From IMG/VR virus record IMGVR_UViG_3300035670_000354, positions 1-47,453 of that record: 47,453 bases of DNA; one strand, written 5' to 3'. The position numbers were made by a program, and so were the translations under genes. Origin of the DNA: a virus. The notes below the pieces were generated by a model. That model saw only the letters and a program-made list of their open reading frames with translations. It was not told where the DNA came from and did no database searches. This document shows positions 1-44,835 of the stretch, piece after piece. Position 1 is the first letter of the stretch. Each line of letters begins with the position of its first letter.

Positions 1-2
1 AC

Positions 3-167
3 GCCCGCGCCGCCGCCGACGCCGCCGACGCCGCCTACGCCGCCGCCGCCTACGCCCGCGCCGCCGCCGCCGAACCCACCACCACCGCCGCCTACGCCTC
101 CTACACCGCCGAGCGCAAAGCGCAGCTCACAGACCTTCACCAACTAGCCAAGGAGACTATCGTATGA
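3..167 (+). CDS. C-terminal fragment of an Ala-rich repeat protein (partial at left edge)
   Basis: The reading frame that starts at base 3 is open from the window edge to the TGA at 165-167. It reads as short Ala-rich repeats of the type DAADAAYAA, followed by a non-repetitive charged tail (AERKAQLTDLHQLAKETIV). I prefer this frame because its stop overlaps the ATG of the next gene (ATGA at 164-167), the same coupling seen along the whole operon. Ala-rich repeats of this kind followed by a helical tail occur at the ends of several phage hypothetical proteins; no function is assigned. Frame 1 is also open, but gives only a Pro/Thr-rich low-complexity string ending at 147. The 5' part of the gene lies outside the window. 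Confidence 0.6.
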   Translation, partial: ARAAADAADAAYAAAAYARAAAAEPTTTAAYASYTAERKAQLTDLHQLAKETIV

Positions 168-514
168 ATATCATCGAAGCACTAGCAGCGATGCGCGAGG
201 GCCACACTGTTAGGCACAGCTCGTGGCGCGAAGATGCAACCTTACGTAGAGACAATGAATCAGGCTTGTTTGAGCACTCAAGTCGAGACGGGCAAACTGA
301 GTCAGACCTTGTGGTTCGCATTGCACGAGAACTGGTAATCGAAGGCGGATGGTCGATCGTGCGCGAGCAGTTCGACTTCGCCGAGGCCGTGAGACGCATG
401 CATGCCGGCAAGCGCGTCAAGCGCGCCGCTTGGGTGGTGCCTGTCATCGGCGAGAGCCGTATTTCATGCCTGGCTGTTGCTGACGTAACCGCGACCGATT
501 GGGAGGAAGTATGA
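164..514 (+). CDS. Tad2-like (DUF2829) two-domain protein 1
   Basis: This 116-residue protein holds two short copies of the DUF2829 / Thoeris anti-defence 2 (Tad2)-like pattern. The first copy is MNIIEALAAMREGHTVRHSSW to about residue 64, closing with GWSIV. The second starts at FDFAEAVRRMHAGKRVKRAAW (about residues 69-89) and closes with the family-typical ATDWEEV at the C-terminus. Characterised Tad2 is a small phage protein that binds and sequesters the cyclic ADP-ribose-type signal of Thoeris defence. The start is the ATG at 164, overlapping the previous stop as ATGA. It is the first of three adjacent paralogues. Family membership is read from the pattern; binding of a signalling nucleotide is inference, and the short variable middles mean the ligand could differ or be absent. 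Confidence 0.72.
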   Translation: MNIIEALAAMREGHTVRHSSWREDATLRRDNESGLFEHSSRDGQTESDLVVRIARELVIEGGWSIVREQFDFAEAVRRMHAGKRVKRAAWVVPVIGESRISCLAVADVTATDWEEV

Positions 515-852
515 ATATCATTGAAGCGTTGGAAGTCATGGACCGCGGTGAGCGAGTGCGGCACGATTCGTGGCATGTCGGGATGGTTGCCGTAAAGATC
601 GACGGCACATACGCGATAGTGAGTCACGGAAAAGAGGCTGGGGTTTTTGCATGGACTCACGTCAACACAGTGCGAGACGGGTGGTCGATCGTGCGCGAGC
701 AGTTCGACTTCGCCGAGGCCGTGCGGCGGATGAACAAAGGTAAGAGCGTGAGGAGAGCCTCATGGGAAAAGCATGATTGGTTGTCTCACACAATAACTGT
801 CGGAGCTATTGCGCCAGAAGACGCAACCGCGACCGATTGGGAGGAAGTATGA
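511..852 (+). CDS. Tad2-like (DUF2829) two-domain protein 2
   Basis: This 113-residue paralogue of the preceding gene has the same layout: a first domain beginning MNIIEALEVMDRGERVRHDSW and ending GWSIV, the linker REQ, then a second domain FDFAEAVRRMNKGKSVRRASW ending ATDWEEV. The start is the ATG at 511, which overlaps the previous stop (ATGA) and has a strong GGGAGG ribosome site at 501-506. An upstream in-frame ATG at 499 would add only MGGS and would put the start inside the previous gene. The DNA around the domain linker (about 680-723) is nearly identical to 349-392 in gene 1, so the duplication looks recent or is kept uniform. Function as a nucleotide-signal sponge is inferred from the family only. 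Confidence 0.72.
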   Translation: MNIIEALEVMDRGERVRHDSWHVGMVAVKIDGTYAIVSHGKEAGVFAWTHVNTVRDGWSIVREQFDFAEAVRRMNKGKSVRRASWEKHDWLSHTITVGAIAPEDATATDWEEV

Positions 853-1181
853 ATATCATTGAAGCGTTGGAAGCCGTGGACCGCGGTGAGCGCGTGCGGC
901 ACGATTCGTGGGACGGGGAAGGGTATGTAGTAAGCAACGGCAAAGCCGTAGTCGACAAAGACGGATTCGTTTGCACCTTTGTACCTTCTTCGGCGTTGCG
1001 CGACGGGTGGTCGATCGTGTCGAAAACGTTCGACTTCGCCGAGGCCGTGAGGCGCATGAGAGGCGGCCGTTGTGTACGGCGGAGGGGCTGGAAGTTTGGC
1101 GTAGGGATCATCTCAAGCGAGCGAATCGGAGATCGTCTTACGCCGATTGACGTGTCGGCGACCGATTGGGAAGAAGTGTGA
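849..1181 (+). CDS. Tad2-like (DUF2829) two-domain protein 3
   Basis: This is the third tandem paralogue, 110 residues: MNIIEALEAVDRGERVRHDSW, then GWSIV, a changed linker (SKT instead of REQ), then FDFAEAVRRMRGGRCVRRRGW and the closing ATDWEEV. The ATG at 849 overlaps the previous stop and is preceded by the same GGGAGGAAGT leader as gene 2. The segments between the conserved joints (about residues 22-50 and 77-103) differ freely among the three copies while the joints are almost fixed. That pattern fits one fold with diversified surface or pocket residues. It is followed directly by a nuclease gene through a GTGA overlap, so the array is the head of the replication operon in this window. 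Confidence 0.72.
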   Translation: MNIIEALEAVDRGERVRHDSWDGEGYVVSNGKAVVDKDGFVCTFVPSSALRDGWSIVSKTFDFAEAVRRMRGGRCVRRRGWKFGVGIISSERIGDRLTPIDVSATDWEEV

Positions 1182-2746
1182 AAGAACTATCCGCATCGCA
1201 GCTCAAGTCCTCGTTCGGGTGTATGGCCCGATGGGGCTTGAACTACATCGAAGGCGAGCGCGAGCCCGCTACGGCCTCGACCGAGCTCGGTCAAGCCGTG
1301 CACAAGGAGCTCGAGGATTGGGTGTCCTCGGCGAAGATGCCCAAGAACCGAATCGCCCTCGCGGCGCTACCCTACGCCCCCACGCCGGGCTCGGCGTTCG
1401 TCGAGCGGGCCATCCGCTTCCGTACCGAGAGCTCGCCGTGGCGGGGCTACATAGACGTCCAGACCGTAGACGGCATCGCTAAGGTAGAGTCGTTGGCCCA
1501 GCTCGACGGGGCCGTGGCGTCCACGATCCAAGACTGGAAAACGACCTCGAGCATCCAATGGGCGCTCGACGAGGCCGGGCTGCTCGGCGACATCCAAGCC
1601 AACCTCTACGCCTACGAGACCTTCGTCGAGCAGCGGGTTCGTACCGTTCGCGGTCGGTGGGTCTACTTACCGACCAAAGGCGCGTGCCGGCCCAAGGTCG
1701 TCGAAGTCAAGTTCGACCGCAACCGAACGCTTGACTTTGTCGACGGGGTGTTAGACCCTAAGGCCTCGGAGCTGCAACGGCTCTACCAACTCCGTCCGAA
1801 ATGGACCGACTTACCTAAAGACACCTCGAAATGCTTTGCTTACGGCAAACGATGCCCTGGCTACGAACGCTGCAATCCGACCTCTAACAAGAACCTGCTA
1901 CACGGAGACGAATACATGGACTTCAAAGACGCTATGGCCGCTAAGTTCCCTGGCCTTCCGCCCGTACCCCCGCCACCGCTCCCCGCGATTCCGGCCGCTC
2001 CGGCGCTCGTAGCGCCCCCGGCCCCGCCGGTACCCGAAGCCGGGTTCGTCAACCCGCCCGAGGCCCCGCGCGTCGCCGCTAAGAGCCCCGAGCACGCCGT
2101 CCAGCTCCAGGCGGTGGTTCCGCCCGCCCCGCCCGCTCCGGTCGACGAGCTCGACGGTCTCACGCGCGACCAGCTCAAGGCGTTGGCGGTGCTCGAGGGC
2201 GCGGAGCCCGAGAACACGCGCAAGCGCGAGCAAGCCCTTAGGGAGTCGATCCGGGATTGGCGCTCGAAATGGGGGTCGTACAAGGACGCGGCGCCTTCGG
2301 TCCCGGACACGATCGTCCCGCCCGCACCTACGACCAAGAGCGTCATAGAGCTGCACATAGAAGAAGACCAGAAAAACGGAGATTGGGGCGAAGATGACGT
2401 TATGGTGCCGCCCGTACCGGACGCCCTCCCGGCCGAGGCGATCGACACACAAAACGTAACTCCGGGTTTCGTTTTGTATCTCGGGTGTGCCCCGCTCGAT
2501 GGCGACTTCATCCATCTTTCGTTGCTGGTGTCGCTAGCCAACAACCAAATCCAAAGGGAGTACAAGGTCGCGGACTACCGCCTAGTCGAGTACGGAAAAG
2601 GCCCCGGGATGCTTGCCTCCATCGTGGCCGATCTGCTAGACCGTGAGCCGCACACGCACATCGTAGCCGAGCTTTGCCCCTCGACGTCGGTGTGCATGGA
2701 CATCCTCCTAGCTCGCGCTTCTAAGGTCGTCCGCTCTTTTTCCTAG
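1178..2746 (+). CDS. RecB/Cas4-like PD-(D/E)XK nuclease with Fe-S cysteines
   Basis: This 522-residue protein has an N-terminal PD-(D/E)XK exonuclease domain (about 1-235). Visible elements are GQAVH near residue 42, GYIDV (D93), the IQDWKTT core (D119, K121) and QANLYAY near 140. Cys15 together with Cys219, Cys226 and Cys232 has the arrangement of the 4Fe-4S-binding cysteines of Cas4/AddB-type nucleases. A Pro/Ala-rich linker (about 260-325) leads to a short SAP-like helix pair (LTRDQLKALAV) and a C-terminal domain I do not recognise. The start is the GTG at 1178, overlapping the previous stop (GTGA); an in-frame TTG at 1166 lies inside the preceding gene. It is likely a single-strand or end-processing exonuclease working with the adjacent helicase in phage replication or recombination. 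Confidence 0.78.
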   Translation: MKELSASQLKSSFGCMARWGLNYIEGEREPATASTELGQAVHKELEDWVSSAKMPKNRIALAALPYAPTPGSAFVERAIRFRTESSPWRGYIDVQTVDGIAKVESLAQLDGAVASTIQDWKTTSSIQWALDEAGLLGDIQANLYAYETFVEQRVRTVRGRWVYLPTKGACRPKVVEVKFDRNRTLDFVDGVLDPKASELQRLYQLRPKWTDLPKDTSKCFAYGKRCPGYERCNPTSNKNLLHGDEYMDFKDAMAAKFPGLPPVPPPPLPAIPAAPALVAPPAPPVPEAGFVNPPEAPRVAAKSPEHAVQLQAVVPPAPPAPVDELDGLTRDQLKALAVLEGAEPENTRKREQALRESIRDWRSKWGSYKDAAPSVPDTIVPPAPTTKSVIELHIEEDQKNGDWGEDDVMVPPVPDALPAEAIDTQNVTPGFVLYLGCAPLDGDFIHLSLLVSLANNQIQREYKVADYRLVEYGKGPGMLASIVADLLDREPHTHIVAELCPSTSVCMDILLARASKVVRSFS

Positions 2747-2755
2747 AGGTGAACC

Positions 2756-5017
2756 GTGCAGCTCACTCCGAAGCAACAACTCGAAGCGATGGGCCTAACG
2801 CTAGGCGAGATGGAAGCCGCCCACGAAGAGCCGTCTAAACCCCGCTTCGACGAAGTCCCCGACGGGCCGGAGCTGCACCGTATACTTTCGTTGCCGTGGC
2901 GGGAGCCGCCTTCGCAAAGCGACTCTGAGGCAGAAAATTTGGCTAAATTTTTGACGGCCCGATTCGCCAAGAACAATTCCCCTTACCCGGGCGCTCTGCG
3001 GCCTATCCAGGCCCTAGCGCTTCGGGAAGCGTGGGAAGCCAAGGGCCTCGTCGCGATGATGGCCGTGGGCACTGGGAAAAGCCTCTGCGCGTGGCTCATT
3101 CCGCTGATTCTCGACGCGGTGCGGCCGTTGTATTGCTGCCCTGCCGGGATGGTCGGTCCCATACAAACGGAGTTCGCGAAGTTCATGCCGCATTGGCACG
3201 GACCGTTCTCCTACCCGGTGTTGTCCTACTCGAAGCTAGCGGCCCCGAAGGCGGCGGCCGTCTACGACGCCAAGGGCGACCTCTTCCGGGCTCCGTTGCT
3301 TGACCGGCTAGCCCCAGACCTTATCGTCCTCGACGAGGCGCACGCGTGCGGGAACTCGGGCTCGGCTACGACGAAGCGTATCCGAGCGTACCTCAAGGCG
3401 AACCCGACCACGAAGGTAGTGGTGATGTCCGGGACGCTGCTCCGAACCTCGATCAACCAAGGCGCCCACCTTATGGACTGGGCCTTGGGCGCGGGTTCGC
3501 CGTTACCACGCGACTTCGAGGAGCGCATGGCGTGGGCGGCGGCGCTCGACGCCGGGGCCGCCGGCGGGGGTTTGACGTTCGACGCCGGGGCGTTGACGAA
3601 GATGCTCCAACCCGGTGAGGGTACCGACCTAGACACCGTGCGTAAGGCCGTAGGGCGCCGCATCCTCTACACCCCGGGCGTCATCGGCACCCAAGGGCAA
3701 ATCGTCGACGCCGGGCTCACCGTAGACGCATGGGAGCCCGAGTCAGAGGACCCGGTGCTGAACGACGCCTTCGAGGCGCTGCGCTCGACGTGGGCGCTCC
3801 CGGACGGCGACGAGATAGCCGACGGCATCGAACTCGCGCGCCACGCCTTCACGCTTGGGAACGGCCACTATCAAACTTGGTTCTCACACGAGGGGTTTAG
3901 AGAATGCCTTACAAAGATCCTGAAATTGGAAGACAAAAAGCTAAGCAGAGAAGAGAAGCAGATATTGAGGGACATCGCCAGAGGGACAGAGATAGATACT
4001 ACGCTGGTCGTGGCTCTAGGGAACCTAGAGCGAGACTTGCCTCTCACAGAAAGCACTCTCTCCGAACACGGTACGGACTTACCCAAGAACAATACGACGA
4101 GCTTGTCGCTAAATACGACGGAGTTTGCCATGTTTGCAGGGTCAGACGTCACAGCACACTCAAAGGAAAGCCGTTGTGCGTCGATCACTGCCACGAAACC
4201 GGAAAAGTACGAGGGGTCTTGTGTAACCAGTGCAATCAATCAATCGGGAAACTGGGAGACACTGCTGAAGCGCTATACCGTGTTGCAGCCTATCTTGCGG
4301 GAGGCGATCGCGTCGGCTAAGCCTCCTGTAGAATGGCGGATGGCCCGGAACGAATGGGCGAAGTGGTGCCGCAAGGCGATCAAGGTGAACAAGCGCAACA
4401 TCCACTCCGAGGCGACGATGAAAGACGCCGTGCGCAAGGGCCTCTACAACGACGGAGGCCTTCTCGAGAAGTGGGAGGCGGCTAGGGACGCGGAGCGCGC
4501 TCGAACGGGCCTTAGAGAGCCCGCCAGTTTGACTGTATGGGTGTCAGACGAGGCTATAAGAGCAGTGAGATCCTGGCTGGCCGACCACGAAGGGGTCGTG
4601 TGGGTCCTCAACACCGGCCTAGGTGTTCGCTTGTCCGAGGAGCTCAAGATCCCTTTCTACGGGGCCCAGGGCCTCGACGCGAAAGGCAACCACATCACGA
4701 AGCACCGAGGTGGTCCCGCGGTGTCGTCCATCCAAGCCAACGGCACCGGCAAGAACCTTCAAGGGTTGTGGTCGAAGAACCTGTGGCTCACGACCCCGAC
4801 CGAACAAGCGCTGGGGCGTACGCACCGCCCTGGACAAAAGGCCGATGTCGTGCAGAATTGGATTTACCTCGGGTGTGCTGAGCACCTAGAGGCGTTTTGG
4901 CGAGCCGCGGAGCAAAAGACCGGGTTCGCCGAGCACATGACTTCGTCTTCTCAAAAGCTTACCGTAGCAAAAATCGACGTACCGAAAACAAAAACAGGGA
5001 GCGCGAGATGGAGATAG
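2756..5017 (+). CDS. SNF2-like superfamily 2 DNA helicase, interrupted by a nested HNH gene
   Basis: This 753-residue helicase has Walker A AVGTGKS (103-109), DEAH (193-196) and SGT (225-227) in the first RecA-like lobe, and the second-lobe motifs NGTGKNLQGL (about 661) and QALGRTHRPGQ (about 684), typical of phage SNF2-type helicases. Start is a GTG at 2756 with an AGAGGTGA ribosome site. Codons about 378-521 (roughly 3886-4320) look foreign. They are AT-richer and translate to a Ser/Thr-rich string with no helicase character, while another frame of the same DNA encodes an Endo VII-type HNH enzyme. The helicase frame stays open through it, so either the protein carries a neutral ~144-residue inter-lobe loop or its activity is reduced. 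The gene overlaps the following Tad2-like start. Confidence 0.85.
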   Translation: MQLTPKQQLEAMGLTLGEMEAAHEEPSKPRFDEVPDGPELHRILSLPWREPPSQSDSEAENLAKFLTARFAKNNSPYPGALRPIQALALREAWEAKGLVAMMAVGTGKSLCAWLIPLILDAVRPLYCCPAGMVGPIQTEFAKFMPHWHGPFSYPVLSYSKLAAPKAAAVYDAKGDLFRAPLLDRLAPDLIVLDEAHACGNSGSATTKRIRAYLKANPTTKVVVMSGTLLRTSINQGAHLMDWALGAGSPLPRDFEERMAWAAALDAGAAGGGLTFDAGALTKMLQPGEGTDLDTVRKAVGRRILYTPGVIGTQGQIVDAGLTVDAWEPESEDPVLNDAFEALRSTWALPDGDEIADGIELARHAFTLGNGHYQTWFSHEGFRECLTKILKLEDKKLSREEKQILRDIARGTEIDTTLVVALGNLERDLPLTESTLSEHGTDLPKNNTTSLSLNTTEFAMFAGSDVTAHSKESRCASITATKPEKYEGSCVTSAINQSGNWETLLKRYTVLQPILREAIASAKPPVEWRMARNEWAKWCRKAIKVNKRNIHSEATMKDAVRKGLYNDGGLLEKWEAARDAERARTGLREPASLTVWVSDEAIRAVRSWLADHEGVVWVLNTGLGVRLSEELKIPFYGAQGLDAKGNHITKHRGGPAVSSIQANGTGKNLQGLWSKNLWLTTPTEQALGRTHRPGQKADVVQNWIYLGCAEHLEAFWRAAEQKTGFAEHMTSSSQKLTVAKIDVPKTKTGSARWR
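3904..4320 (+). CDS. Recombination endonuclease VII-type HNH homing endonuclease, nested in the helicase gene
   Basis: This 138-residue ORF lies in the -1 frame relative to the surrounding helicase. Its C-terminal half shows the Endo VII family pattern: LTQEQYDELVAKYDGVC, a CxxC knuckle (CHVC), LCVDHCHETGKVRGVLC with the catalytic DHCH, then CNQCNQSIGKLGD and a closing helix. The N-terminal half is basic (QKAKQRREADIEGHRQRD) and probably binds DNA. The ORF fills almost the whole anomalous segment, so there is little room for a group I intron core. The likely role is a free-standing mobile endonuclease that cleaves intron-less or cassette-less alleles. It may be translated from an internal start or be expressed poorly; the ATG at 3904 has only a weak upstream AGAGA-type site. 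Confidence 0.88.
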   Translation: MPYKDPEIGRQKAKQRREADIEGHRQRDRDRYYAGRGSREPRARLASHRKHSLRTRYGLTQEQYDELVAKYDGVCHVCRVRRHSTLKGKPLCVDHCHETGKVRGVLCNQCNQSIGKLGDTAEALYRVAAYLAGGDRVG

Positions 5018-5328
5018 AGAGCGACGTAGAGATTGAGAACGGCAGAGGCTCCATCGGGGACGCTATCATTTGCCTAAAGAACGGCTTTCGTGTGTATCGA
5101 AAGGGGTGGAACGGCAAGGGAGTGTGGCTAGGCGTGTGGGGCTTTGAGCCCAGAGACGGCAATGAAGTATCACCTTGCATCACCATGAAGACTGCGCTAG
5201 ACACTTACCAGCCCGGTTGGTTGGCATCGCAAGCCGACTTACTAGCCGAGGATTGGTGTGTCCTCGAAGAGGATCTCGCCGCGTTCAGACAAGTACTCGA
5301 AGACGAAAAAGCAAAAGAAGAGGTATAA
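5008..5328 (+). CDS. Canonical Tad2-like (DUF2829) protein
   Basis: This 106-residue protein is the textbook single-domain form of DUF2829/Tad2: SIGDAIICLKNGFRVYRKGWNGKG, then WLGVWGFEPRDG, PCITMKTALDTYQPGW and LASQADLLAEDWCVLEE, followed by an acidic helix. Family members of this length include characterised Thoeris anti-defence 2 proteins, which bind and sequester the cyclic nucleotide made by ThsB. The start is the ATG at 5008, inside the helicase stop region, with a GGGAG site at about 4997-5001; longer in-frame starts to 4897 lie within the helicase. It is separated from the tandem Tad2-like trio by only the nuclease and helicase, so the same operon has four Tad2-like genes and seven domains. 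Confidence 0.85.
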   Translation: MEIESDVEIENGRGSIGDAIICLKNGFRVYRKGWNGKGVWLGVWGFEPRDGNEVSPCITMKTALDTYQPGWLASQADLLAEDWCVLEEDLAAFRQVLEDEKAKEEV

Positions 5329-8183: not shown

Positions 8184-10084
8184 AACTCTTTCTTGATTTC
8201 GAAACGTTTTTGGTACAGCCCGCGTGCCAGGCCCCGCCGATCGTGTGCGCGGTGCTGGCCGAGGACGATGGCCCCGCCGAGCTCCTTCACGCCCGCTTCG
8301 ACCCGCTCTACGCCCGCCTAGAGGGCTACCTACGCGACCCCGACGTCGAGATCGTAGCGCACTCCGCTTCGTTCGAGGTGCTGGTGATGATGGCGGCGCA
8401 CCCGGAATGGACGTCGCTTCTCTTCCAGAAGCTCCGCGGAAAAAAGATACGGTGCACCGAGGTCCGCGAGAAGCTGATCCGCATTGGCCGCGGCGAGCGC
8501 TTCGAGCTCTTCAACCTCGAGGCGTGCCTCGGGTACTGGAAGCTGCCCGTGACCGTCGACAAGTCCTCGTATTGGCGCACGCGCTACGGCACCCTCTACG
8601 ACCAACCGTGCTCGGCGTGGCCGCAAGAGGCCCGGGACTACGTCCTAGGCGACATGGCCGTCCGAGACCTCTTCAACGCCCAAGCTTCGGTCGATCCAAA
8701 GTATCTGGTCGACGAAGCCGCCCAGGTCCGCGCGGCCGTAGCGCTGCGGCTCATGTCGGCGTGGGGCTTCACTACCGACCGCGAGCGCGCGGAGAAGTTC
8801 TTGGTGACGGTCGAGGAGGACCTCAAGAAGGCCGAGGCCGTGGTCGTCGAGAACGGCCTAGCACGCATGTCGGGCGGGAAGCTGGTCAAGAACAAGAAGG
8901 CCGCTGAGGCGCGTATCGTCGCCGCTTACACGGCCCAAGGTCGAGACGTACCCCGGGGCGAGCCTACGGAGAAGATGGTCGACGCCGGGCTCCACGAAGG
9001 CAACATCCGACTCGACAAAGAAGCGTGCGTGTTGTCCGACGACCCGGTGCTGAAGGCCTACACCAAGTTCTCTCAGGCCGACACGCTACGCTCGAAGGCC
9101 CGCCGGCTACTACACTCCCCGATTCAATGCCGGTACAACGTGCTCGTCGCCACCGGCCGAACGTCATGCTCGCAAGGAGACGACCCCAAGCCCGGGGAGG
9201 CGTGGAGCGCCTACGGGATGCAACTCCAGAACCTACCCCGCGCAGAGGGCGTCCGCGAGTGCTTCGTAGCTCGTCCCGGCCACGCGATAGTCTCGGTGGA
9301 CTACGATGCTTTCGAGATGCGGACGTGGGCCCAGGTCACGAAGTGGGTGCTCGGGTACTCCGACCTAGCTGAGATCCTTAACGACCCGAAGCGGTGCCCT
9401 CACGTCGAGATGGGCGCCGGTCTCCGAGGGATATCGGTCCAGGCGGCCTACGCGCTCAAAGGTGACGACAAGAAGGCGCTACGCGGGATGGCGAAGGGCC
9501 CGAACTTCGGCCTCCCGGGCGGCATGGGCGCCGCTAGGCTCATGGACTATTGCCGGCTCGGCTACGGCGTCGAGCTCACGATGGCCCAGGCCCAGAACGC
9601 TTGCGCGGTGTGGCGTCGGGTGTACCGTGAGGCGCAGCCGTATCTCGATTGGATCTCGACGCTGATAGGCAAGCGGGGCTCGAAGGCTACCATCGAGCAG
9701 TTCGTGTCCAAGCGCCTCCGCGGGCGCGTGGGGTATTGCGACGCCGCCAACGGGTTCTTCCAAGGCCTCGCCGCCGACATCGCCAAGGACGCGATGTGGC
9801 GCGTCACCGAGCAAGCCTACGAGGTGAAGTCTTCGGCGCTCTACGGGTGCCGACCGCTGGCGTTCATCCACGACGAGCTCCTCTACGAAGTCCCGCTCGA
9901 CCGCCTCACCGAGGCCGGAGAGCTCATGGCGTCGATCATGACGCGCACGGCTATGGAGTGGTGCCCGGACGTTTTGTTTACCGCTTCTCCGGCCGCTCAG
10001 TTACACTGGTCCAAGGCCGCCGGTGACCCGGTGCGCGACGCCAACGGGGCGCTGATCCCTTACGAACACCGGGGGCATGTGTGA
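8180..10084 (+). CDS. polA: Family A DNA polymerase with 3'-5' exonuclease
   Basis: This 634-residue replicative polymerase has an N-terminal DnaQ-like proofreading domain (DFET at 6-9, HSASFEV near 68, and GDMAVRDL near 158) and a C-terminal Pol I palm. Motif A is SVDYDAFEMR (about 372), motif B RGMAKGPNFG (about 435), and motif C HDELLYEV (H564, D565, E566). The 5'-3' exonuclease domain of bacterial Pol I is absent, as in T7-like polymerases. In motif B the Phe of NFG is retained, while the usual Tyr two turns on is replaced (LPGG), a change common in viral enzymes. ATG at 8180 overlaps the GNAT stop. An AP2-HNH gene follows through a GTGA overlap. Confidence 0.95.
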   Translation: MKLFLDFETFLVQPACQAPPIVCAVLAEDDGPAELLHARFDPLYARLEGYLRDPDVEIVAHSASFEVLVMMAAHPEWTSLLFQKLRGKKIRCTEVREKLIRIGRGERFELFNLEACLGYWKLPVTVDKSSYWRTRYGTLYDQPCSAWPQEARDYVLGDMAVRDLFNAQASVDPKYLVDEAAQVRAAVALRLMSAWGFTTDRERAEKFLVTVEEDLKKAEAVVVENGLARMSGGKLVKNKKAAEARIVAAYTAQGRDVPRGEPTEKMVDAGLHEGNIRLDKEACVLSDDPVLKAYTKFSQADTLRSKARRLLHSPIQCRYNVLVATGRTSCSQGDDPKPGEAWSAYGMQLQNLPRAEGVRECFVARPGHAIVSVDYDAFEMRTWAQVTKWVLGYSDLAEILNDPKRCPHVEMGAGLRGISVQAAYALKGDDKKALRGMAKGPNFGLPGGMGAARLMDYCRLGYGVELTMAQAQNACAVWRRVYREAQPYLDWISTLIGKRGSKATIEQFVSKRLRGRVGYCDAANGFFQGLAADIAKDAMWRVTEQAYEVKSSALYGCRPLAFIHDELLYEVPLDRLTEAGELMASIMTRTAMEWCPDVLFTASPAAQLHWSKAAGDPVRDANGALIPYEHRGHV

Positions 10085-10536
10085 GACTAATAAAGGCCAG
10101 CAACAGAGAGATCTACGCTAGAGTAGACGATGAAGACTACGATTTGCTCGTTCCTCTTACTTGGACTGCCGTACAAGGTAAGACCCACAGAAGCCCGTAC
10201 TTGAAAAGCTTCAAGCTCGGCATGTATATGCACCGATTCATTCTAGGAGCATCTCAAGGGGACTTGGTGGACCACATAGACATGGACACCACTAACAACC
10301 AAAAAGAGAATCTGCGGATATGTAGCAGAGCAGAGAACGGGAGGAACAGAGGCAAGACCAGAAGAAACAGCTCTGGTTTCAAGGGTGTGTCGTGGCACAA
10401 AAAGACAGGTAAATGGAGGGCAAGAATCAGAGCAGGGCAAGAGATACATCTAGGTCTGTTTGACAGCGCAGAAGAAGCCTATAAGGCCTACACGGAAGCC
10501 TCCGTCAGGCTACACAAAGACTTTGCTAGAGGGTAG
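10081..10536 (+). CDS. HNH homing endonuclease with AP2 DNA-binding domain
   Basis: This 151-residue protein has an N-terminal region (DYDLLVPLTWTA), an HNH core (MHRFILGA, VDHIDMDTTNNQKENLRICS, which supplies D-H-I-D and two Asn), and a C-terminal AP2-like domain (SGFKGVSWHKKTGKWRARI, then HLGLFDSAEEAYKAYTEA). This is the standard layout of phage free-standing homing endonucleases. The gene is AT-richer than both neighbours, consistent with recent arrival, and it is inserted exactly between polA and thyX with GTG (10081) overlapping the polA stop. Homing endonucleases often sit beside polymerase and thymidylate synthase genes, whose sequences they target. Confidence 0.92.
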   Translation: MRLIKASNREIYARVDDEDYDLLVPLTWTAVQGKTHRSPYLKSFKLGMYMHRFILGASQGDLVDHIDMDTTNNQKENLRICSRAENGRNRGKTRRNSSGFKGVSWHKKTGKWRARIRAGQEIHLGLFDSAEEAYKAYTEASVRLHKDFARG

Positions 10537-32356: not shown

Positions 32357-35300
32357 CTAGACGATCGCGCACACCCCGCCCGCGCACGCCGCCTCCGCGC
32401 GCAACGAGGTGTTGTCCTCGGCCTCGTGCACCTCGAGGTAAAGAACCGGCGTGTAGTTCGAGGTGAGCTCCGCCCAGCGTTTCTCGTCTTCCTCCGTGGT
32501 GATGGCCTCGTTGGGAGCGAAGGCGTAGTCTTTGTCCCCGGTCGAGGCCAGCAACGACACGCCGGTGAAGTCTTGGCGGTTCTCCCAAATGTAGTCGGCG
32601 ACCTCGTCCCATTCGTGGGGGTGGACCACGACGGTGTTCGAGACGTTGTGGTGAAGCCCCGGGGAGTCCTCGGACCTAGCGGTGCCGGGCACCACCCAGT
32701 TTTGCTGGGTAGACCGGACCATTTCCAAGAACTCCAGGGCCCGGATGTCGTCCTTGATGATGGCGCCCTCGGGGGCCTCGACGGGGAACTCGATGACCCA
32801 CTTACCGTCTGGCTTCTTGACGCACATGTGCGGGTTGGCCGCGTAGAAGGCCTGGAACACTACCTCAAGCTCGTCGGCCGTGACGCGCCGGATGTAGCGG
32901 CGGGCGTGGTGGGCGTGGTGCCCGGAGCCGACGCTCCCCAGCGCCAAAGACGTCGTACCGGACGGTTTTACGCATGTCGTACGGGCGGCTGGGCGGATGC
33001 CTAGCTCGGCCGCGTAGACCGCGTTCCACGCCTTGATCTTCTCCGCCACCGAGCGCTGGAACTCGGGGTTGCACGCCACCTCCGGCGCGTCGAGCATGCC
33101 GGTCATCCCGATACCGAGTAGCGCGTCCCGGCGCGCGATGGCCTCGGATACAAACCCCAGGTAAGGCATGTCGGTGTAAGACGCCTGGAGCGTGCCGATC
33201 AGCGTAGCGGCCTTGGCGGCCAGCTCGAAGTCGGCCAGAGACTCTAGCTGCGCCGCGTTGATCTCGCACAAGTTGCAAAACGCCCAGCCGGTATAGGCCG
33301 TGCCTTTGCGTAAGTATACGGGATTCAAGCCGATTTCGGCGCATTGTCCGGCAACTATGCCGTTGGCTGTAACGATATTGGTTTCTGGTTGTGTCAAGCA
33401 GAACACGTCCGAAAAACCGACGGACTCGATGCTTACGATTTTGGTTATGAACCTCTCAGGTTTACGGCAGTCTTCGCCCCTCTCTTCTAGGTATCGGTTG
33501 ATCTTGTCGGCCTTGCGTCCTAGTAGCCCTATCTTGTCTCGGAACGTGATTAGGTTGGGCCTATTCACGATCAATTCATACGTCTGCTTGCACCAATAGT
33601 CCTTCCGACCGCCGTTGCCGTCAGGCAAGGAACGGAAACCAGCCGGGTGCCTAGGGTACACCTTGCTGATGACTCCGAACATACTCAAGAGAACCTGAAC
33701 GTCCTCAAGTAGCTCTTTGCTAGATTGCGATAACCTCAAAGAGATAGTTTTCTTGGTGCCCTCTCCTCCTGAGAGGACCGTCCCGTCTGACATAAACAGA
33801 CCACGCAGATAGCCCGCTACGAACTCCTTGGACCCGCCCCAGACGGACTCTGGCACACGGGCCTTCAAACCCGCCACTTGCTCTCCGTCGGCTAGGGTCT
33901 CCAGCCATCGGTACAATCGCGCCCCTCCAATCCTCTTCTTGGCTACGCCTCCCTCGGTCAAGACGCCTTCCAGCCACGTACACGGCCCATAGTTCCTTTT
34001 ACGAAATGACGGAATGCTCGTAACTACAGCATTCACACAATCGCCTACGTGCTCGAGGACATCGAAGTCGGGTTGCCACAGATCTACAAAGGCTAGTTTG
34101 TCGTCGTGGGTAGAAGTACCGTCCCCTGTATACAACCCCAAGACCAAACCTTCGTCCGCCGTGCCTGTGGTGCCAAAGCTTCCTTCCCCTGACGGCAAGA
34201 GCAAGACGTCCCCGACCTTCAAATCCCTGAGCTCCTTCCTACCCTCCGGAGTCGGGAACTCGTGTCGATCCGTGACCTTGACCTTGAAGCCGTGTTCGGT
34301 GACTAGCTCGAAGACTTCGGCGTTCTTCTGGGTGAGGCGGACTGGGCCGGCAGCGAGAACGGACACGCCTTTTGTGTCGTAGATTGCGCTGCCTTTGCCG
34401 GCTCGCTTGTCGGCGACTACTAGATTCTGTGCACCCTTCTTGGCCATATCACCGATCTTCTTGTAGCCTTCGTTGGTCCAGATTCGGGTGTCCGGGTGAA
34501 AGCAGGGGTTAGTACCGTGATCGTAGTTGTCCGTGAAAAAGAACCCCGGCTCACCCCATTGCCGCGTCATTTCGAAGATGCGCTTGAACTCCTCCTCGCC
34601 GACTTCGTCCCGTTTCAGCACGACCGAGTTGTTGGCGTTCGAGAACCAAGGGTCGGTCGCCCACCACGACCCCGTCTTGGCTGCCATCATTTCGGGGTCT
34701 TCTAGCGAGAACAGCGCGATCATAGCCGAGCGTCGGATACCGCCGGACAACACCGCGTCGGCGGCGTGACACATGATGCGATGGCATTCGATAGGGCGGA
34801 GCTGGCGGCCTTGGGCGTCGGTCAGCACCCCGCGGATGCGCTCCAACGTCTCGGCCAGCTTCGCCGAGCCCGGCGCGCGCCCGCCAGAGGTCTTTAGAGG
34901 CGTTCCGGCGGGCCGGACGGCCGAGTAGTCGAACTCGAGGTGCTCCCCGGCCTGGAAGGCCGCCAGGAGGGCTTTGAGGGCATCCGCCCAGCCCTCGATG
35001 GTGTCGCCCACGACGTGGGTACGAACGCGCTCCGGGTCGACGGTGCCAATGACGGGCAGCCTCGAGACATGCCGGAACTGAACCGAGTAGCCGACGCCGC
35101 ACCCGCTCAAGAGCAAGAACAACGCCTCGGAGAACACCTCCAGCCGATCTACCAAAGAAAACGAGCAGTTGTAGATTCGGTTGCTGTTGGCTTCGATCGC
35201 CGCCCCGCCGAACTGCATCGAACGCATCGACGGCAGCACCTTCTTAGCCCGCACGAGGTCGAACGCACCTCGGATCTTGCCCTCTAGGTGCGGGAACCTA

Positions 35301-35431
35301 CGGATGTGCATGGCCTCGACCCGGGCCACGGTCTCGGTGTAGGTCTCCCGCCGAGAGAGCTCGGGTAGGAAGCGGGCGTACTTGGCTGCATGGATGTAGT
35401 CGGAGATTGCTTCTGGTCCTGGTCCGCGCAT
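32357..35431 (-). CDS. nrdJ: Class II (adenosylcobalamin-dependent) ribonucleotide reductase, intein-containing
   Basis: This 1024-residue precursor makes a 637-residue enzyme after removal of an intein at residues 310-696. Extein motifs are NCSFSLVDR, GCGVGYSVQF, the NPC-AEI active-site strand (split by the intein), CVKPSGTTS and the C-terminal CAGGVCAIV redox cysteines. Start is the ATG at 35431 with AGGAG upstream; an in-frame extension to 35539 lies over a zinc-ribbon gene. Monomeric class II reductases make deoxynucleotides without oxygen and are common in phages. It lies in the late region, away from the other nucleotide genes, and has a GTGGTAGGCT promoter-like site upstream. Confidence 0.92.
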   Translation of the reverse strand: MRGPGPEAISDYIHAAKYARFLPELSRRETYTETVARVEAMHIRRFPHLEGKIRGAFDLVRAKKVLPSMRSMQFGGAAIEANSNRIYNCSFSLVDRLEVFSEALFLLLSGCGVGYSVQFRHVSRLPVIGTVDPERVRTHVVGDTIEGWADALKALLAAFQAGEHLEFDYSAVRPAGTPLKTSGGRAPGSAKLAETLERIRGVLTDAQGRQLRPIECHRIMCHAADAVLSGGIRRSAMIALFSLEDPEMMAAKTGSWWATDPWFSNANNSVVLKRDEVGEEEFKRIFEMTRQWGEPGFFFTDNYDHGTNPCFHPDTRIWTNEGYKKIGDMAKKGAQNLVVADKRAGKGSAIYDTKGVSVLAAGPVRLTQKNAEVFELVTEHGFKVKVTDRHEFPTPEGRKELRDLKVGDVLLLPSGEGSFGTTGTADEGLVLGLYTGDGTSTHDDKLAFVDLWQPDFDVLEHVGDCVNAVVTSIPSFRKRNYGPCTWLEGVLTEGGVAKKRIGGARLYRWLETLADGEQVAGLKARVPESVWGGSKEFVAGYLRGLFMSDGTVLSGGEGTKKTISLRLSQSSKELLEDVQVLLSMFGVISKVYPRHPAGFRSLPDGNGGRKDYWCKQTYELIVNRPNLITFRDKIGLLGRKADKINRYLEERGEDCRKPERFITKIVSIESVGFSDVFCLTQPETNIVTANGIVAGQCAEIGLNPVYLRKGTAYTGWAFCNLCEINAAQLESLADFELAAKAATLIGTLQASYTDMPYLGFVSEAIARRDALLGIGMTGMLDAPEVACNPEFQRSVAEKIKAWNAVYAAELGIRPAARTTCVKPSGTTSLALGSVGSGHHAHHARRYIRRVTADELEVVFQAFYAANPHMCVKKPDGKWVIEFPVEAPEGAIIKDDIRALEFLEMVRSTQQNWVVPGTARSEDSPGLHHNVSNTVVVHPHEWDEVADYIWENRQDFTGVSLLASTGDKDYAFAPNEAITTEEDEKRWAELTSNYTPVLYLEVHEAEDNTSLRAEAACAGGVCAIV
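33344..34504 (-). mobile_element. Intein with LAGLIDADG endonuclease, inserted before the RNR catalytic Cys
   Basis: The 387-residue insertion starts with Cys1 (CFHPDTRIWTNEGYKKIGDM, block A), has a block B VTDRHEFPTPEG with the T-x-x-H-like site, and endonuclease blocks LVLGLYTGDGT and FVAGYLRGLFMSDGT. It ends ETNIVTANGIVAGQ before the +1 Cys of CAEI. The last residue is Gln rather than Asn and the penultimate residue is Gly rather than His. The encoded DNA is AT-richer than the exteins. Such an ending occurs in other inteins of ribonucleotide reductases and implies a modified final splicing step. Confidence 0.88.
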
Positions 35432-35453
35432 GTAAACTCCTGGGCGAACCAGA

Positions 35454-35463
35454 AGCCTACCAC
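35454..35463 (-). promoter_or_regulatory. Late promoter-like motif GTGGTAGGCT before the RNR gene
   Basis: A one-base variant of the late motif, 22 bases before the RNR ATG. Confidence 0.4.
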
Positions 35464-35483
35464 AGCCGACCTCGGCGAAGCAA

Positions 35484-35657
35484 CTAGTGTCTTGTGGTCG
35501 TAGAACGCAGCATGTCGCACACGTTCTCGAAGAACTCACAGCCGCAAAAGCACGCCGGAGGCGGGTCCTTGCCGTCCCACAAAGAGAAGCAATACTCGCA
35601 CGACCACATGTCTGCGTAGTGCTCGGGTTTCTCCGGGTCGCGTTTCTGCTTAGCCAT
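35484..35657 (-). CDS. Small zinc-ribbon protein
   Basis: This 57-residue ORF (MAKQKRDPEKPEHYADMWSC then EYCFSLWDG, ACFCGCEFFENVC) has six cysteines, with CEYC followed by CFCGC, consistent with a zinc ribbon or zinc-knuckle protein. ATG at 35657 overlaps the previous gene's stop (GCCAATGGCTAA). It is not long enough for a default ORF cutoff. Its function is unknown; it is part of a small-protein cluster upstream of the RNR gene. Confidence 0.65.
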   Translation of the reverse strand: MAKQKRDPEKPEHYADMWSCEYCFSLWDGKDPPPACFCGCEFFENVCDMLRSTTTRH

Positions 35658-42219: not shown

Positions 42220-44835
42220 TCAGCCACGGTACCGCAACCTCGGGTTCGCCGTCAAGTTGCTTCGCGCGTTGTTCATCGCGGCCTTGAATCGAGTGACTCT
42301 CGAGCGCCCCGACATGAACAACAACGCTTGCGAGGCCGAGTCCACGGAATCATCGAAACTACCAACGGGGAAGGTAGCGAACTCTTCTATCAACCCCGGC
42401 ATCCACGACGCTAGGTGGTCGGGCGGGAACGATACGTTGCCGGCCCGGAAGTAGGGCTCTACGGCCTGCGCGCGGGAGAACTTGCCTCCCTCCGGGGTGA
42501 CGGCCATAACGCCCGGGATGGAGCGTTTGAGGGTGTCTACGACGGCGGTGCCGTTGGCTTTGTCTTCGATCAATATTTGGCCTACGAGCGGCCATTTCGT
42601 CTTCATCGCCTTTACGGCCGCGACCGTAGCCGAGAACGCCATCCGCGCTCGGTGTTGGTCCATAAGGAAGAACTCTGCCCCGCGCCACGCCCAGACTTGA
42701 ATCACGCCGTAGTCGGAGTCGTTGTTGTCTTTCAGCGAAGCATCAACGGACATACACCATCGAACCCCGGTCGGGTGCGCTTCCCATCGCTTGGCGAACC
42801 ATTCGCGCATGAACAACGCGCCGGCCTCGGGCGCGGGGCGTTGTTGCATCTGCGCGGCGAAGGCTCTAGGCGTCATCCCCGTCGGGCCGTGCTCGATGTC
42901 GTCGACGTAGTCCGCCGGGAACCGTTTAGGGGCTAAGAGCTCGCCCTCTTCGGTGCGCCAATCCGAGCCCCATTTCGATTTATACGCGCGCTTGGGCTCG
43001 AAGCGCATCGGGAGGCAAAGATGGACCGTCTTGGGGTCCTTTATCATCCGCCCGGCTAGGTCCTCTTCGTGAAGGCGCTGCATGATGCACACCTTCGCGA
43101 ACTTTTCGGCGTCGGCGACGCGGCGACAGAACGTCTCCGACCATCGCGTCCAGGCCTCGTCGAGGACGTTCTTGGCGCTCGAGCCGCCTACGTTGAGGTC
43201 CGCGGGTTTGATTGGATCGTCGACGATTAGGGTGTGCGCGTGGCGGCCGGTGGCGGCGCCGCCCATCATCGTCGAGAAGCGGACCCCGCCGGCCGAGTTC
43301 TTGAAGAGCCCTGCCGATGCGCGGTCGCCGCCGAGGATCTCCCAATCCGACCACCGCTCCCGGAACCAATCGGATTGCATAAGCGCCATCGAGCGCCGAG
43401 CGAAGTCGTAAGAGAGGTCTTTGTCGTAAGTCACGAAGATGAACTTCCGCCACGGGTTTTGGATCCAATCCCAAGCGGGATAGAGGATCGAACTTATTAG
43501 GCTTTTTGAGTTGTGCGTTAGGACGTGATGTTTAGTCACGTAGAGGTGATCTGGCGCGGAGACTTCAATACACGAGCACTCCTCTACGACGCCGGTTGGA
43601 CGGATTGATACTACCGCGCGCCTCGGGGCTCGCTGGCGGGGGTGAGAGACGAAAGCGTCGACCTTTCGCCGCAAACGGAACGGCACCACTCCGCTAGGGA
43701 ACGTCATGCGCAGAGAGAAAACTCTCTTGCCGGCCTTCTTCTCTCCTTTGTAGGTGTAGCTCGTAGCGTAGTCGTGTTTGGCACAGACCCCGCCAAGAGA
43801 CTCTACTAGCTCTTTGGCTTGATCCGCCATGGTCTCCGAGACAGTGCTCAAGACGGCGCTAGGGCCCGAGTTGTGCCCATCCGTATCAAGCAGTCCCTGA
43901 AGTAGCGCCAGTCTCTGGGCAGGTGACGCGGTCATATACGCGGAGGGAATGAATTTTGTGTGGCTACGCGTGCCGTGCAGCCTTAGATCTCTCAGTATGG
44001 CCGTCAGAGGGTTGTGGTTCCACTCCCCTTTTCCTCGGGTCCCAGTTGTCAGGATAGCCTGAATCGCGTCCGTGCCTTGCTTCTTTTCGAGCTTCAGGTG
44101 CACGCCCTCCGGCAGCACTAGGGACTGCTCCAGCCCGTCTATGCTGGTGAAGCTGGGCGTGTAGTCCAGGCACCCGTCCCCCAGCAACAGCCCCAGCGTG
44201 TAGGGGTCCAAAGGCAGGGCCGCCTCTGGACGTTGTATCGGCGCGGCGACAGGGCAGAAGAACATCGACTTGAGGTGAGCCCCGGCTTGTTTGCGAAGCG
44301 TCGTCTCCGCCCACTCAGCCGTGGTTTTGGTGACGTTAGGTGCTCTCTTCGCCAGACGGCCTCTGCGCCCGGCTTCGGTCTTGGCGGCGGGGTCCGGCTT
44401 CTTGGCTTTGGACCCTTGGCAATCGGCTTGCTCGAATGTCCAAAGGTGGCGGGCCTCACACCGGACCACCGAACCGTCGGAGAACTCTACCTCCCAGACT
44501 TCTCGCGGCCCTTGAGGGTGCACACGTAAGACGTCATGAAGCATACCGTCCGATCCGTAGACCCGGTCCCCTGGGCGAACTTCCCCCATCGGGACCCAAC
44601 CGCGCTCGAGTAAAATAGGCTCGCTGTGTGGTTGCGCCATACCCGGCGGAATAGCTACGACTAGGTCTTTGATCTCCCCGCGCGACACCGCTTCGTAGTG
44701 TGCGCAGATCAAATCCATATGCGGCTCGAATACGAGATCCGCGGCTTCGACTTGGTGCCATGCGCGCTTAACGAACTCGGCGAAGCCTTTACGTCGGATT
44801 TGTTCGCGATCTACGAGGGCGGATGGGGAGGCCAT
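42220..44835 (-). CDS. terL: Large terminase subunit with intein in the Walker A loop
   Basis: This 871-residue precursor gives a 495-residue packaging ATPase/nuclease once its intein (residues 67-442) is removed. Spliced Walker A reads AIPPGM-SKSL, followed by SILYPAWDWIQNPWRKFIFVTYD, then VDDP near the Walker B position (LIVDDPIKPADL), CIMQRLHEEDLAGRMI, and the nuclease half CMSVDASLKDNNDSDYGVIQVW, GQILIEDKANGTAVVDTLK, and ASWMPGLIEEFATFPVGSFDDSVDSASQAL. The last part is the typical phage terminase nuclease end (D-D-x-x-D). Start is the ATG at 44835. Confidence 0.95.
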   Translation of the reverse strand: MASPSALVDREQIRRKGFAEFVKRAWHQVEAADLVFEPHMDLICAHYEAVSRGEIKDLVVAIPPGMAQPHSEPILLERGWVPMGEVRPGDRVYGSDGMLHDVLRVHPQGPREVWEVEFSDGSVVRCEARHLWTFEQADCQGSKAKKPDPAAKTEAGRRGRLAKRAPNVTKTTAEWAETTLRKQAGAHLKSMFFCPVAAPIQRPEAALPLDPYTLGLLLGDGCLDYTPSFTSIDGLEQSLVLPEGVHLKLEKKQGTDAIQAILTTGTRGKGEWNHNPLTAILRDLRLHGTRSHTKFIPSAYMTASPAQRLALLQGLLDTDGHNSGPSAVLSTVSETMADQAKELVESLGGVCAKHDYATSYTYKGEKKAGKRVFSLRMTFPSGVVPFRLRRKVDAFVSHPRQRAPRRAVVSIRPTGVVEECSCIEVSAPDHLYVTKHHVLTHNSKSLISSILYPAWDWIQNPWRKFIFVTYDKDLSYDFARRSMALMQSDWFRERWSDWEILGGDRASAGLFKNSAGGVRFSTMMGGAATGRHAHTLIVDDPIKPADLNVGGSSAKNVLDEAWTRWSETFCRRVADAEKFAKVCIMQRLHEEDLAGRMIKDPKTVHLCLPMRFEPKRAYKSKWGSDWRTEEGELLAPKRFPADYVDDIEHGPTGMTPRAFAAQMQQRPAPEAGALFMREWFAKRWEAHPTGVRWCMSVDASLKDNNDSDYGVIQVWAWRGAEFFLMDQHRARMAFSATVAAVKAMKTKWPLVGQILIEDKANGTAVVDTLKRSIPGVMAVTPEGGKFSRAQAVEPYFRAGNVSFPPDHLASWMPGLIEEFATFPVGSFDDSVDSASQALLFMSGRSRVTRFKAAMNNARSNLTANPRLRYRG
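43510..44637 (-). mobile_element. Class 3-type intein with LAGLIDADG endonuclease in terL
   Basis: The 376-residue intein begins with Ala (AQPHSEPILLERGWVPMGEV, without a Cys/Ser nucleophile) and ends LTHN before Ser+1 of SKSL. It contains the W-C-T set of class 3 inteins: a Trp in block B (RHLWTFEQ), a Cys at the start of block F (CSCIEVSAPDHLYV), and the Thr of LTHN. The central part carries LGLLLGDGCL and LLQGLLDTDGHN, the two LAGLIDADG helices. Class 3 inteins use the block F Cys as the branch nucleophile. The site lies exactly at the phosphate-binding loop of the ATPase. Confidence 0.9.

What the first reader, a model, noticed from the sequence alone, without database searches (positions are those of the whole stretch)
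164..5328. Four Tad2-like genes (seven domains) in one phage operon
Three tandem, translation-coupled genes each carry two short DUF2829/Tad2-like domains, and a canonical single-domain Tad2-like gene follows 3.8 kb later. Characterised Tad2 proteins sequester the signal of Thoeris. An array of internally duplicated, diversified copies would be a new form, for example a set of sponges for different cyclic nucleotides or hetero-oligomers. The pattern is visible; ligand binding is inference.
Basis: partly seen in the sequence, partly recalled or inferred. Interest (0 to 1): 0.8.

Follow-up and report, generated by a model that had tools for sequence, protein, structure and literature searches.

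The report
Tandem array of doubled Tad2-like proteins
A phage carries three overlapping, diversified genes, each encoding two shortened copies of a fold that other phages use to soak up bacterial alarm molecules, plus one standard-looking copy nearby; such arrays turn up in unrelated phages too, but whether the shortened copies bind any molecule is unknown.

Summary
Genes A (164-514), B (511-852) and C (849-1181) overlap by ATGA and each encode two short Tad2-like domains. D (5008-5328) is a single canonical Tad2-like domain. All four pass the PF11195 cut-off. AlphaFold models of B and C match only Tad2 structures at the top of the PDB list.

The sponge reading fits D well. It is unproven for A-C, which keep the Tad2 scaffold but have none of the canonical ligand-loop motifs that D has. 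Near-identical constant blocks (up to 96% over 92 nt) are separated by unalignable cassettes lying where Tad2 forms its pocket: the pattern of tandem duplication, recombination and diversification.

The array is not one of a kind. Tandem short Tad2-likes occur in unrelated viral contigs (L235, L009, L255, L236, L238, L240) and Lactobacillus Harbinvirus phages; two-domain proteins occur in L009, L235, L255 and Ruminococcus phage phiRg507T2_3 gp19.

One new detail: the conserved C-terminal DWE codons (TGGGAGG) resemble the next gene's Shine-Dalgarno. The Glu codon is GAG in 29/31 genes with a close downstream neighbour versus 7/24 without.

Verdict: a real, apparently undescribed variant of a known family; function of A-C open.

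The parts
3..167 (+). 3' end of an upstream Ala-rich ORF cut by the window edge; its TGA overlaps gene A's ATG (ATGA)
   Evidence: read directly from the sequence
164..514 (+). Gene A: two-domain Tad2-like protein, 116 aa; domain 1 ~164-361, domain 2 ~371-511
   Evidence: PF11195 E 1.6e-8, two stretches; AAGGAG at 150-155
511..852 (+). Gene B: two-domain Tad2-like protein, 113 aa; domain 1 ~511-693, domain 2 ~703-849
   Evidence: PF11195 E 7e-9, two stretches; AlphaFold pLDDT 81, PDB ranks 1-20 all Tad2, TMt up to 0.69
849..1181 (+). Gene C: two-domain Tad2-like protein, 110 aa; domain 1 ~849-1025, domain 2 ~1029-1178
   Evidence: PF11195 E 5e-10, two stretches; AlphaFold pLDDT 75, PDB ranks 1-24 all Tad2/AcrIIA7
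5008..5328 (+). Gene D: canonical single-domain Tad2-like protein, 106 aa, with GWNGKG, PCITMKTA and GWLASQADLLAEDW
   Evidence: PF11195 E 5e-20; phmmer to AcrIIA7/HgmTad2, SptTad2, SPO1 Tad2, ModTad2 (E 8e-13 to 7e-7); all motifs present
482..573 (+). Constant block spanning the A|B junction (end of A, start of B)
   Evidence: 96% identical over 92 nt to 820-911
820..911 (+). Constant block spanning the B|C junction
   Evidence: 96% identical over 92 nt to 482-573
343..434 (+). Mid-gene constant block of A, shared with B 675-766 (80%) and C 1001-1092 (67%); first ~45 nt nearly identical between A and B
   Evidence: family D2
227..346 (+). Variable cassette V1 of A (B 574-678, C 912-1004)
   Evidence: unalignable between genes, pN close to pS for A/B
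431..484 (+). Variable cassette V2 of A (B 763-822, C 1089-1151)
501..506 (+). GGGAGG inside the DWEEV codons of A: likely Shine-Dalgarno of B (the same at 839-844 for C)
   Evidence: sequence; GAG enrichment in genes with a close downstream gene
1178..2746 (+). PD-(D/E)XK exonuclease-like gene, GTG start overlapping C's stop
   Evidence: PF12705 E 3e-6; phrog_69 exonuclease E 2.5e-9

Best explanation
A-C are a tandem array of doubled, minimal Tad2-fold proteins in an early replication/recombination operon. Tandem duplication created the array: each unit's C-terminal DWE codons supply the ribosome-binding site for the next unit. Recombination between constant frame blocks keeps the scaffold alike (helix 1, the Trp strand, the DW strand) while the loops between diverge. 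D is a canonical Tad2-type sponge that most likely sequesters an ADP-ribose-type or cyclic dinucleotide immune signal. A-C most likely serve the same counter-defence role with altered specificity: each two-domain chain mimics a Tad2 dimer and presents a different pocket or surface made by its variable cassettes, alone or co-assembled with its siblings or D. Shown: family, fold, duplication, mosaicism, diversification, codon bias at the coupling site. Inferred: oligomerisation, any ligand, and the counter-defence function of A-C.
For: Family and fold. D keeps every canonical loop motif and aligns to four solved Tad2s. The variable cassettes fall between the first Trp and the DW strand, where a review places the gcADPR pocket of Tad2 (loops b1-b2, b3-b4, strand b4, loop b4-a3 and helix a3; PMC12043709). 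Constant frames have 69-78% aa identity, dN/dS about 0.2-0.3; cassettes 13-33% aa identity with different lengths. DNA blocks are near-identical beside unalignable cassettes. Similar arrays occur in unrelated contigs, with related genes in different combinations. Short and canonical Tad2-like domains sit in one protein in phage phiRg507T2_3 gp19 and in adjacent genes in L202. Tad2 proteins are known to bind different signals: gcADPR and CDNs, His-ADPR.
Against: No canonical ligand-loop motif in A-C. Domain 2 has only ~24 residues between its Trp and the DW strand, against ~50 in D, so it may be too small for a Tad2 pocket. Foldseek E-values of the Tad2 hits are 0.01-0.35, not below 0.001. The models rest on 4-sequence alignments. 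No ligand, host or co-occurring defence system could be tested. Such short domains are widespread in phages with no known function.
Confidence: 0.42

Rival explanations
1. A-C are Tad2-fold proteins that have lost ligand binding and act through protein contacts: as inhibitors of host proteins, or as accessory subunits that assemble with D or with each other. The diversified loops are protein-binding surfaces.
For: Scaffold kept, ligand-loop motifs absent; short plus canonical domains fused or adjacent elsewhere; loops differ in length between paralogues.
Against: No partner known; loop hypervariability at the pocket position is equally expected for changing ligands.
Confidence: 0.3
2. A-C are early-gene accessory proteins of replication or nucleotide metabolism, unrelated to immunity, translated with the exonuclease and helicase.
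For: Same overlapping operon as a PD-(D/E)XK exonuclease and a helicase, followed by dATP/dGTP diphosphohydrolase, Thy1 and dUTPase genes.
Against: Low GC3 (0.60-0.67 against 0.74-0.84 for the replication genes) and fast cassette divergence suggest accessory, exchangeable genes; relatives elsewhere sit among other small hypothetical genes.
Confidence: 0.15
3. A-C are passenger genes expanded because each unit carries its own coupling site and recombination repeats, with little function.
For: Near-identical junction repeats and a Shine-Dalgarno built into the DWE codons make tandem growth easy.
Against: All ORFs intact; frames under purifying selection (dN/dS about 0.2-0.3); arrays recur in unrelated phages.
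Confidence: 0.1

Closest known systems
Tad2 (SPO1 Gp34.65, ModTad2, HgmTad2/AcrIIA7; Pfam PF11195, former DUF2829)
   Same: Same Pfam family and predicted fold; D also has the canonical loop motifs and similar length.
   Different: A-C are two shortened domains per chain, three tandem genes, and lack GWNGK, the MKTA-like strand and W..SQ.D.
Two-domain short Tad2-like proteins: viral contigs L009 (3995-4369), L235 (12059-12451, minus strand), L255 (9878-10327, minus strand); BFVD A0A6J5RVU0 (122 aa, E 6.7e-6 by fold)
   Same: Two short Tad2-like domains per protein (L009, L235, L255 by profile; A0A6J5RVU0 by full-length fold match); in L009, L235 and L255 beside further Tad2-like genes.
   Different: Sequence identity to A-C is low (about 30% for L009); one two-domain gene per array, not three; AT-rich genomes.
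Harbinvirus tandem Tad2-like genes (Lactobacillus plantarum phages Iacchus, Bromius, Lpa804)
   Same: Runs of 2-4 neighbouring diversified genes with a short Tad2-like domain.
   Different: One Tad2-like domain plus an unrelated C-terminal domain; annotated as hypothetical proteins.
Ruminococcus phage phiRg507T2_3 gp19
   Same: Two Tad2-like domains in one protein.
   Different: Short domain fused to a canonical one; single gene near the lysis genes.
Acb4, Acb2, Tad1 sponges
   Same: Phage sponges for nucleotide signals.
   Different: Acb4 is reported to have no structural homology to Acb2, Tad1 or Tad2 (PMC11722364); not relatives of A-D.

Membership tests
Tad2-like domain superfamily (PF11195) | Score over the curated Pfam cut-off | tested here: met
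   A 35.4, B 36.5, C 40.2, D 72.1 bits against 25
Tad2-like domain superfamily (PF11195) | Tad2 fold | tested here: met
   Models of C and B: the 24 and 20 best PDB hits are all Tad2/AcrIIA7; for B probability 1.00 and TMt up to 0.69; E-values only 0.01-0.35. D by sequence homology to solved Tad2s
Functional Tad2 (signal sponge) | Ligand-loop motifs GWNGK, P.I.MKTA, W..SQ.D..A.DW, in A-C | tested here: not met
   A-C have none of the motifs; 66-74 of 76 canonical relatives have each
Functional Tad2 (signal sponge) | Ligand-loop motifs GWNGK, P.I.MKTA, W..SQ.D..A.DW, in D | tested here: met
   D has all of them (alignment)
Functional Tad2 (signal sponge) | Single-domain chain of roughly 85-105 aa | tested here: not met
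   A-C are two short domains per chain; D (106 aa) meets it
Functional Tad2 (signal sponge) | Homotetramer with pockets between protomers | not testable with these tools
   Only single-chain prediction available
Functional Tad2 (signal sponge) | Binds gcADPR, His-ADPR or CDNs; rescues phage from Thoeris/CBASS | not testable with these tools
   Needs bench assays
AcrIIA7 | Inhibits type II CRISPR-Cas | not testable with these tools
   D aligns to chains deposited as AcrIIA7, which are also Tad2 structures; no activity test possible

The most novel reading that the evidence does not exclude
A recurrent, modular class of phage counter-defence arrays: minimal Tad2-fold units with constant scaffold and swappable pocket cassettes, self-coupled through a ribosome-binding site embedded in their C-terminal DWE codons, giving one phage a repertoire of sponges or decoys for different signals that can be reshuffled by recombination.
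Probability: 0.2. Interest if true: 0.85.

Novelty: new variant of a known kind. Interest (0 to 1): 0.52.

Why it matters
If the short Tad2-like units bind signals, phages would hold expandable, recombining sets of sponges rather than single ones, and a large body of unannotated small phage genes would gain a testable function. If they do not, Pfam's naming of these proteins as 'Tad2-like' anti-Thoeris genes is misleading. Either result can be obtained with small soluble proteins and available ligands.

Tried and rejected
Close relatives of this phage: helicase and DNA polymerase searches of viral contigs found none; C and the L009 protein have no tblastn match in 50,697 phage records; a genome-contig scan with the two-domain alignment found none. 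A junction pattern found nothing. An alignment mixing two-domain and single-domain rows (A3) was not used for folding, since single domains straddle the two halves. The longer TTG start at 4897 for D was rejected in favour of ATG 5008. NCBIfam and PADLOC gave no convincing family for A-D. Acb4 as a relative was rejected from its paper. Of 30 tandem-pattern hits with MNF starts most were chance, with no second Tad2-like gene. A literature search for tandem paralogous sponges returned nothing; the original Tad2 papers did not turn up in the held library, so pocket positions come from a review.

Full report
OBSERVATION. The first 1.2 kb of this 47,453-base IMG/VR virus record contains three overlapping genes, A 164-514, B 511-852 and C 849-1181, joined by ATGA overlaps. 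Gene D (ATG 5008-5328) follows 3.83 kb later, after an exonuclease-like and a helicase gene. All four pass the Pfam PF11195 (Tad2-like) cut-off; A-C match in two stretches each, the best over about profile positions 1-31, and D once over 2-72 of 73. A profile built only from D's phmmer relatives, drawn from 76 viral loci, finds A, B and C at full-sequence E 7e-6, 2e-6 and 2e-7, with two stretches each; after one iteration 5e-11 to 2e-14. Profile-profile comparison with 26 canonical proteins gives 94.7% and E 6e-8 over 25 columns. The two halves of one protein resemble each other only weakly, so the doubling is old (inference).

FOLD. AlphaFold models with a 4-sequence alignment reached pLDDT 75 for C and 81 for B. 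For C, the 24 best PDB matches are all Tad2 or AcrIIA7 chains (best E 0.021), the next being chance at E 7. For B, the 20 best are all Tad2 with probability 1.00 and TM up to 0.69 normalised to the target, rmsd 2.4 over 71 columns. The E-values are modest, but the exclusivity is clear. In B, domain 1 has one helix followed by five strands; domain 2 is smaller. Against predicted viral structures the best match to C is a 122-aa protein of an uncultured Caudovirales phage (A0A6J5RVU0, E 6.7e-6); Harbinvirus Tad2-likes follow closely.

WHAT A-C LACK. In 76 canonical relatives of D, GWNG[KEQ] occurs in 68, an MKTA-like strand in 74, W..SQ.D in 66. D has all of them; A, B and C have none, while DW is kept (alignment). 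A review describes the gcADPR pocket of Tad2 as built from loops b1-b2 and b3-b4, strand b4, loop b4-a3 and helix a3 (PMC12043709). By alignment this is the region replaced in A-C by cassettes of differing length. Domain 2 has only about 24 residues there. So A-C are members of the superfamily, but the features that identify a functional Tad2 were tested and not met; D meets them.

HOW THE ARRAY EVOLVED. The constant frames share 69-78% of residues between genes (dN/dS about 0.2-0.3), while the cassettes share 13-33%, with pN equal to pS for A/B (saturated, so not proof of positive selection). At the DNA level a 92-nt block across the A|B junction is 96% identical to the block across B|C, and a mid-gene block is nearly identical between A and B, with unalignable sequence between. 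B resembles C in its first frame (60/63 nt) but A in the start of its second (23/24 nt), which is a mosaic. GC3 of A-D is 0.60-0.67 against 0.74-0.84 in the replication genes, as expected of acquired accessory genes.

A COUPLING SITE INSIDE THE PROTEIN MOTIF. The last residues of A and B, DWEEV, are encoded GATTGGGAGGAAGTA; GGGAGG lies 4 bases before the next ATG. Across 71 Tad2-like ORFs from all loci, the DWE Glu codon is GAG in 29 of 31 cases where an ORF starts 9-33 nt downstream, 7 of 24 where none does, and 181 of 541 for other Glu codons in the same ORFs (Fisher 1e-6 and 1e-11). The sequences are not all independent, so the p-values are optimistic, but the direction is strong. C, followed by the exonuclease, has TGGGAAG. 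Duplicating such a unit therefore brings its own coupling site (inference).

HOW UNUSUAL IT IS. Of the 76 canonical loci only L202 has a second Tad2-like gene in the flank examined. A pattern for a WE-motif followed at once by MNIIEA gave 13 stretches in IMG/VR. Among them L235 carries six Tad2-like genes, one of them two-domain, and L236, L238, L240, L113 and L069 (same contig as L009) carry about three each. Related genes appear in different combinations on different contigs (for example L240/L236 92% identical; L069/L238 77%). L255 has a two-domain gene beside a single-domain one. In named phages, Iacchus, Bromius and Lpa804 (Harbinvirus) have runs of short Tad2-like genes, and Ruminococcus phage phiRg507T2_3 gp19 has a short and a canonical domain in one protein. 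I found no case with three two-domain genes in a row, and no paper describing such arrays. The searches were pattern-limited, so frequencies are lower bounds.

FUNCTION. D is most probably a Tad2-type sponge (my estimate about 0.6); its signal cannot be told from sequence, since relatives bind gcADPR and CDNs or His-ADPR. For A-C the most likely reading is counter-defence with altered ligand or partner; I put signal binding at roughly 0.4 and protein contact at 0.3. Loop variability on a fixed scaffold and array reshuffling between phages fit an arms race but do not name the target.

VERDICT. Real, correctly counted and better supported than a sequence reading alone could show; a new variant of a known kind. 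The strong claim (a set of sponges for different nucleotides) is open.

Noticed in passing
window 3904-4320 (+), inside helicase ORF 2756-5017: A complete endonuclease VII ORF (PF02945 E 3.9e-23; phrog_2914 6.7e-31) lies in another frame entirely within the helicase ORF, which stays open; local GC is 0.51 against 0.61. It looks like a homing-type insertion read through by the helicase frame.
   Followed up: partly
window 32357-35539 (-): Ribonucleotide reductase gene contains an intein: LAGLIDADG_3 at aa 571-670 and an intein splicing match at aa 355-728.
   Followed up: no
window 42220-44835 (-): Terminase large subunit ORF of 871 aa with terminase matches split around aa 340-440 and a DnaC/primase-like ATPase match at aa 39-145; possible insertion or fusion.
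   Followed up: no
window 10081-10536 (+): HNH_3 plus AP2 protein, a probable homing endonuclease, between DNA polymerase and Thy1.
   Followed up: no
window 1-167 (+): Ala/Asp/Tyr-rich repeat tail of an upstream gene cut by the contig start; D1 direct repeats.
   Followed up: no
L235:9907-12451 (-), L009, L236, L238, L240, L113: Arrays of small Tad2-like genes in AT-rich viral contigs (GC 0.24-0.35), with related genes in different combinations between contigs.
   Followed up: partly
L224, L227 and L228 (Harbinvirus phages): Neighbouring hypothetical genes share a short Tad2-like N-terminus and a common second domain of unknown function.
   Followed up: no
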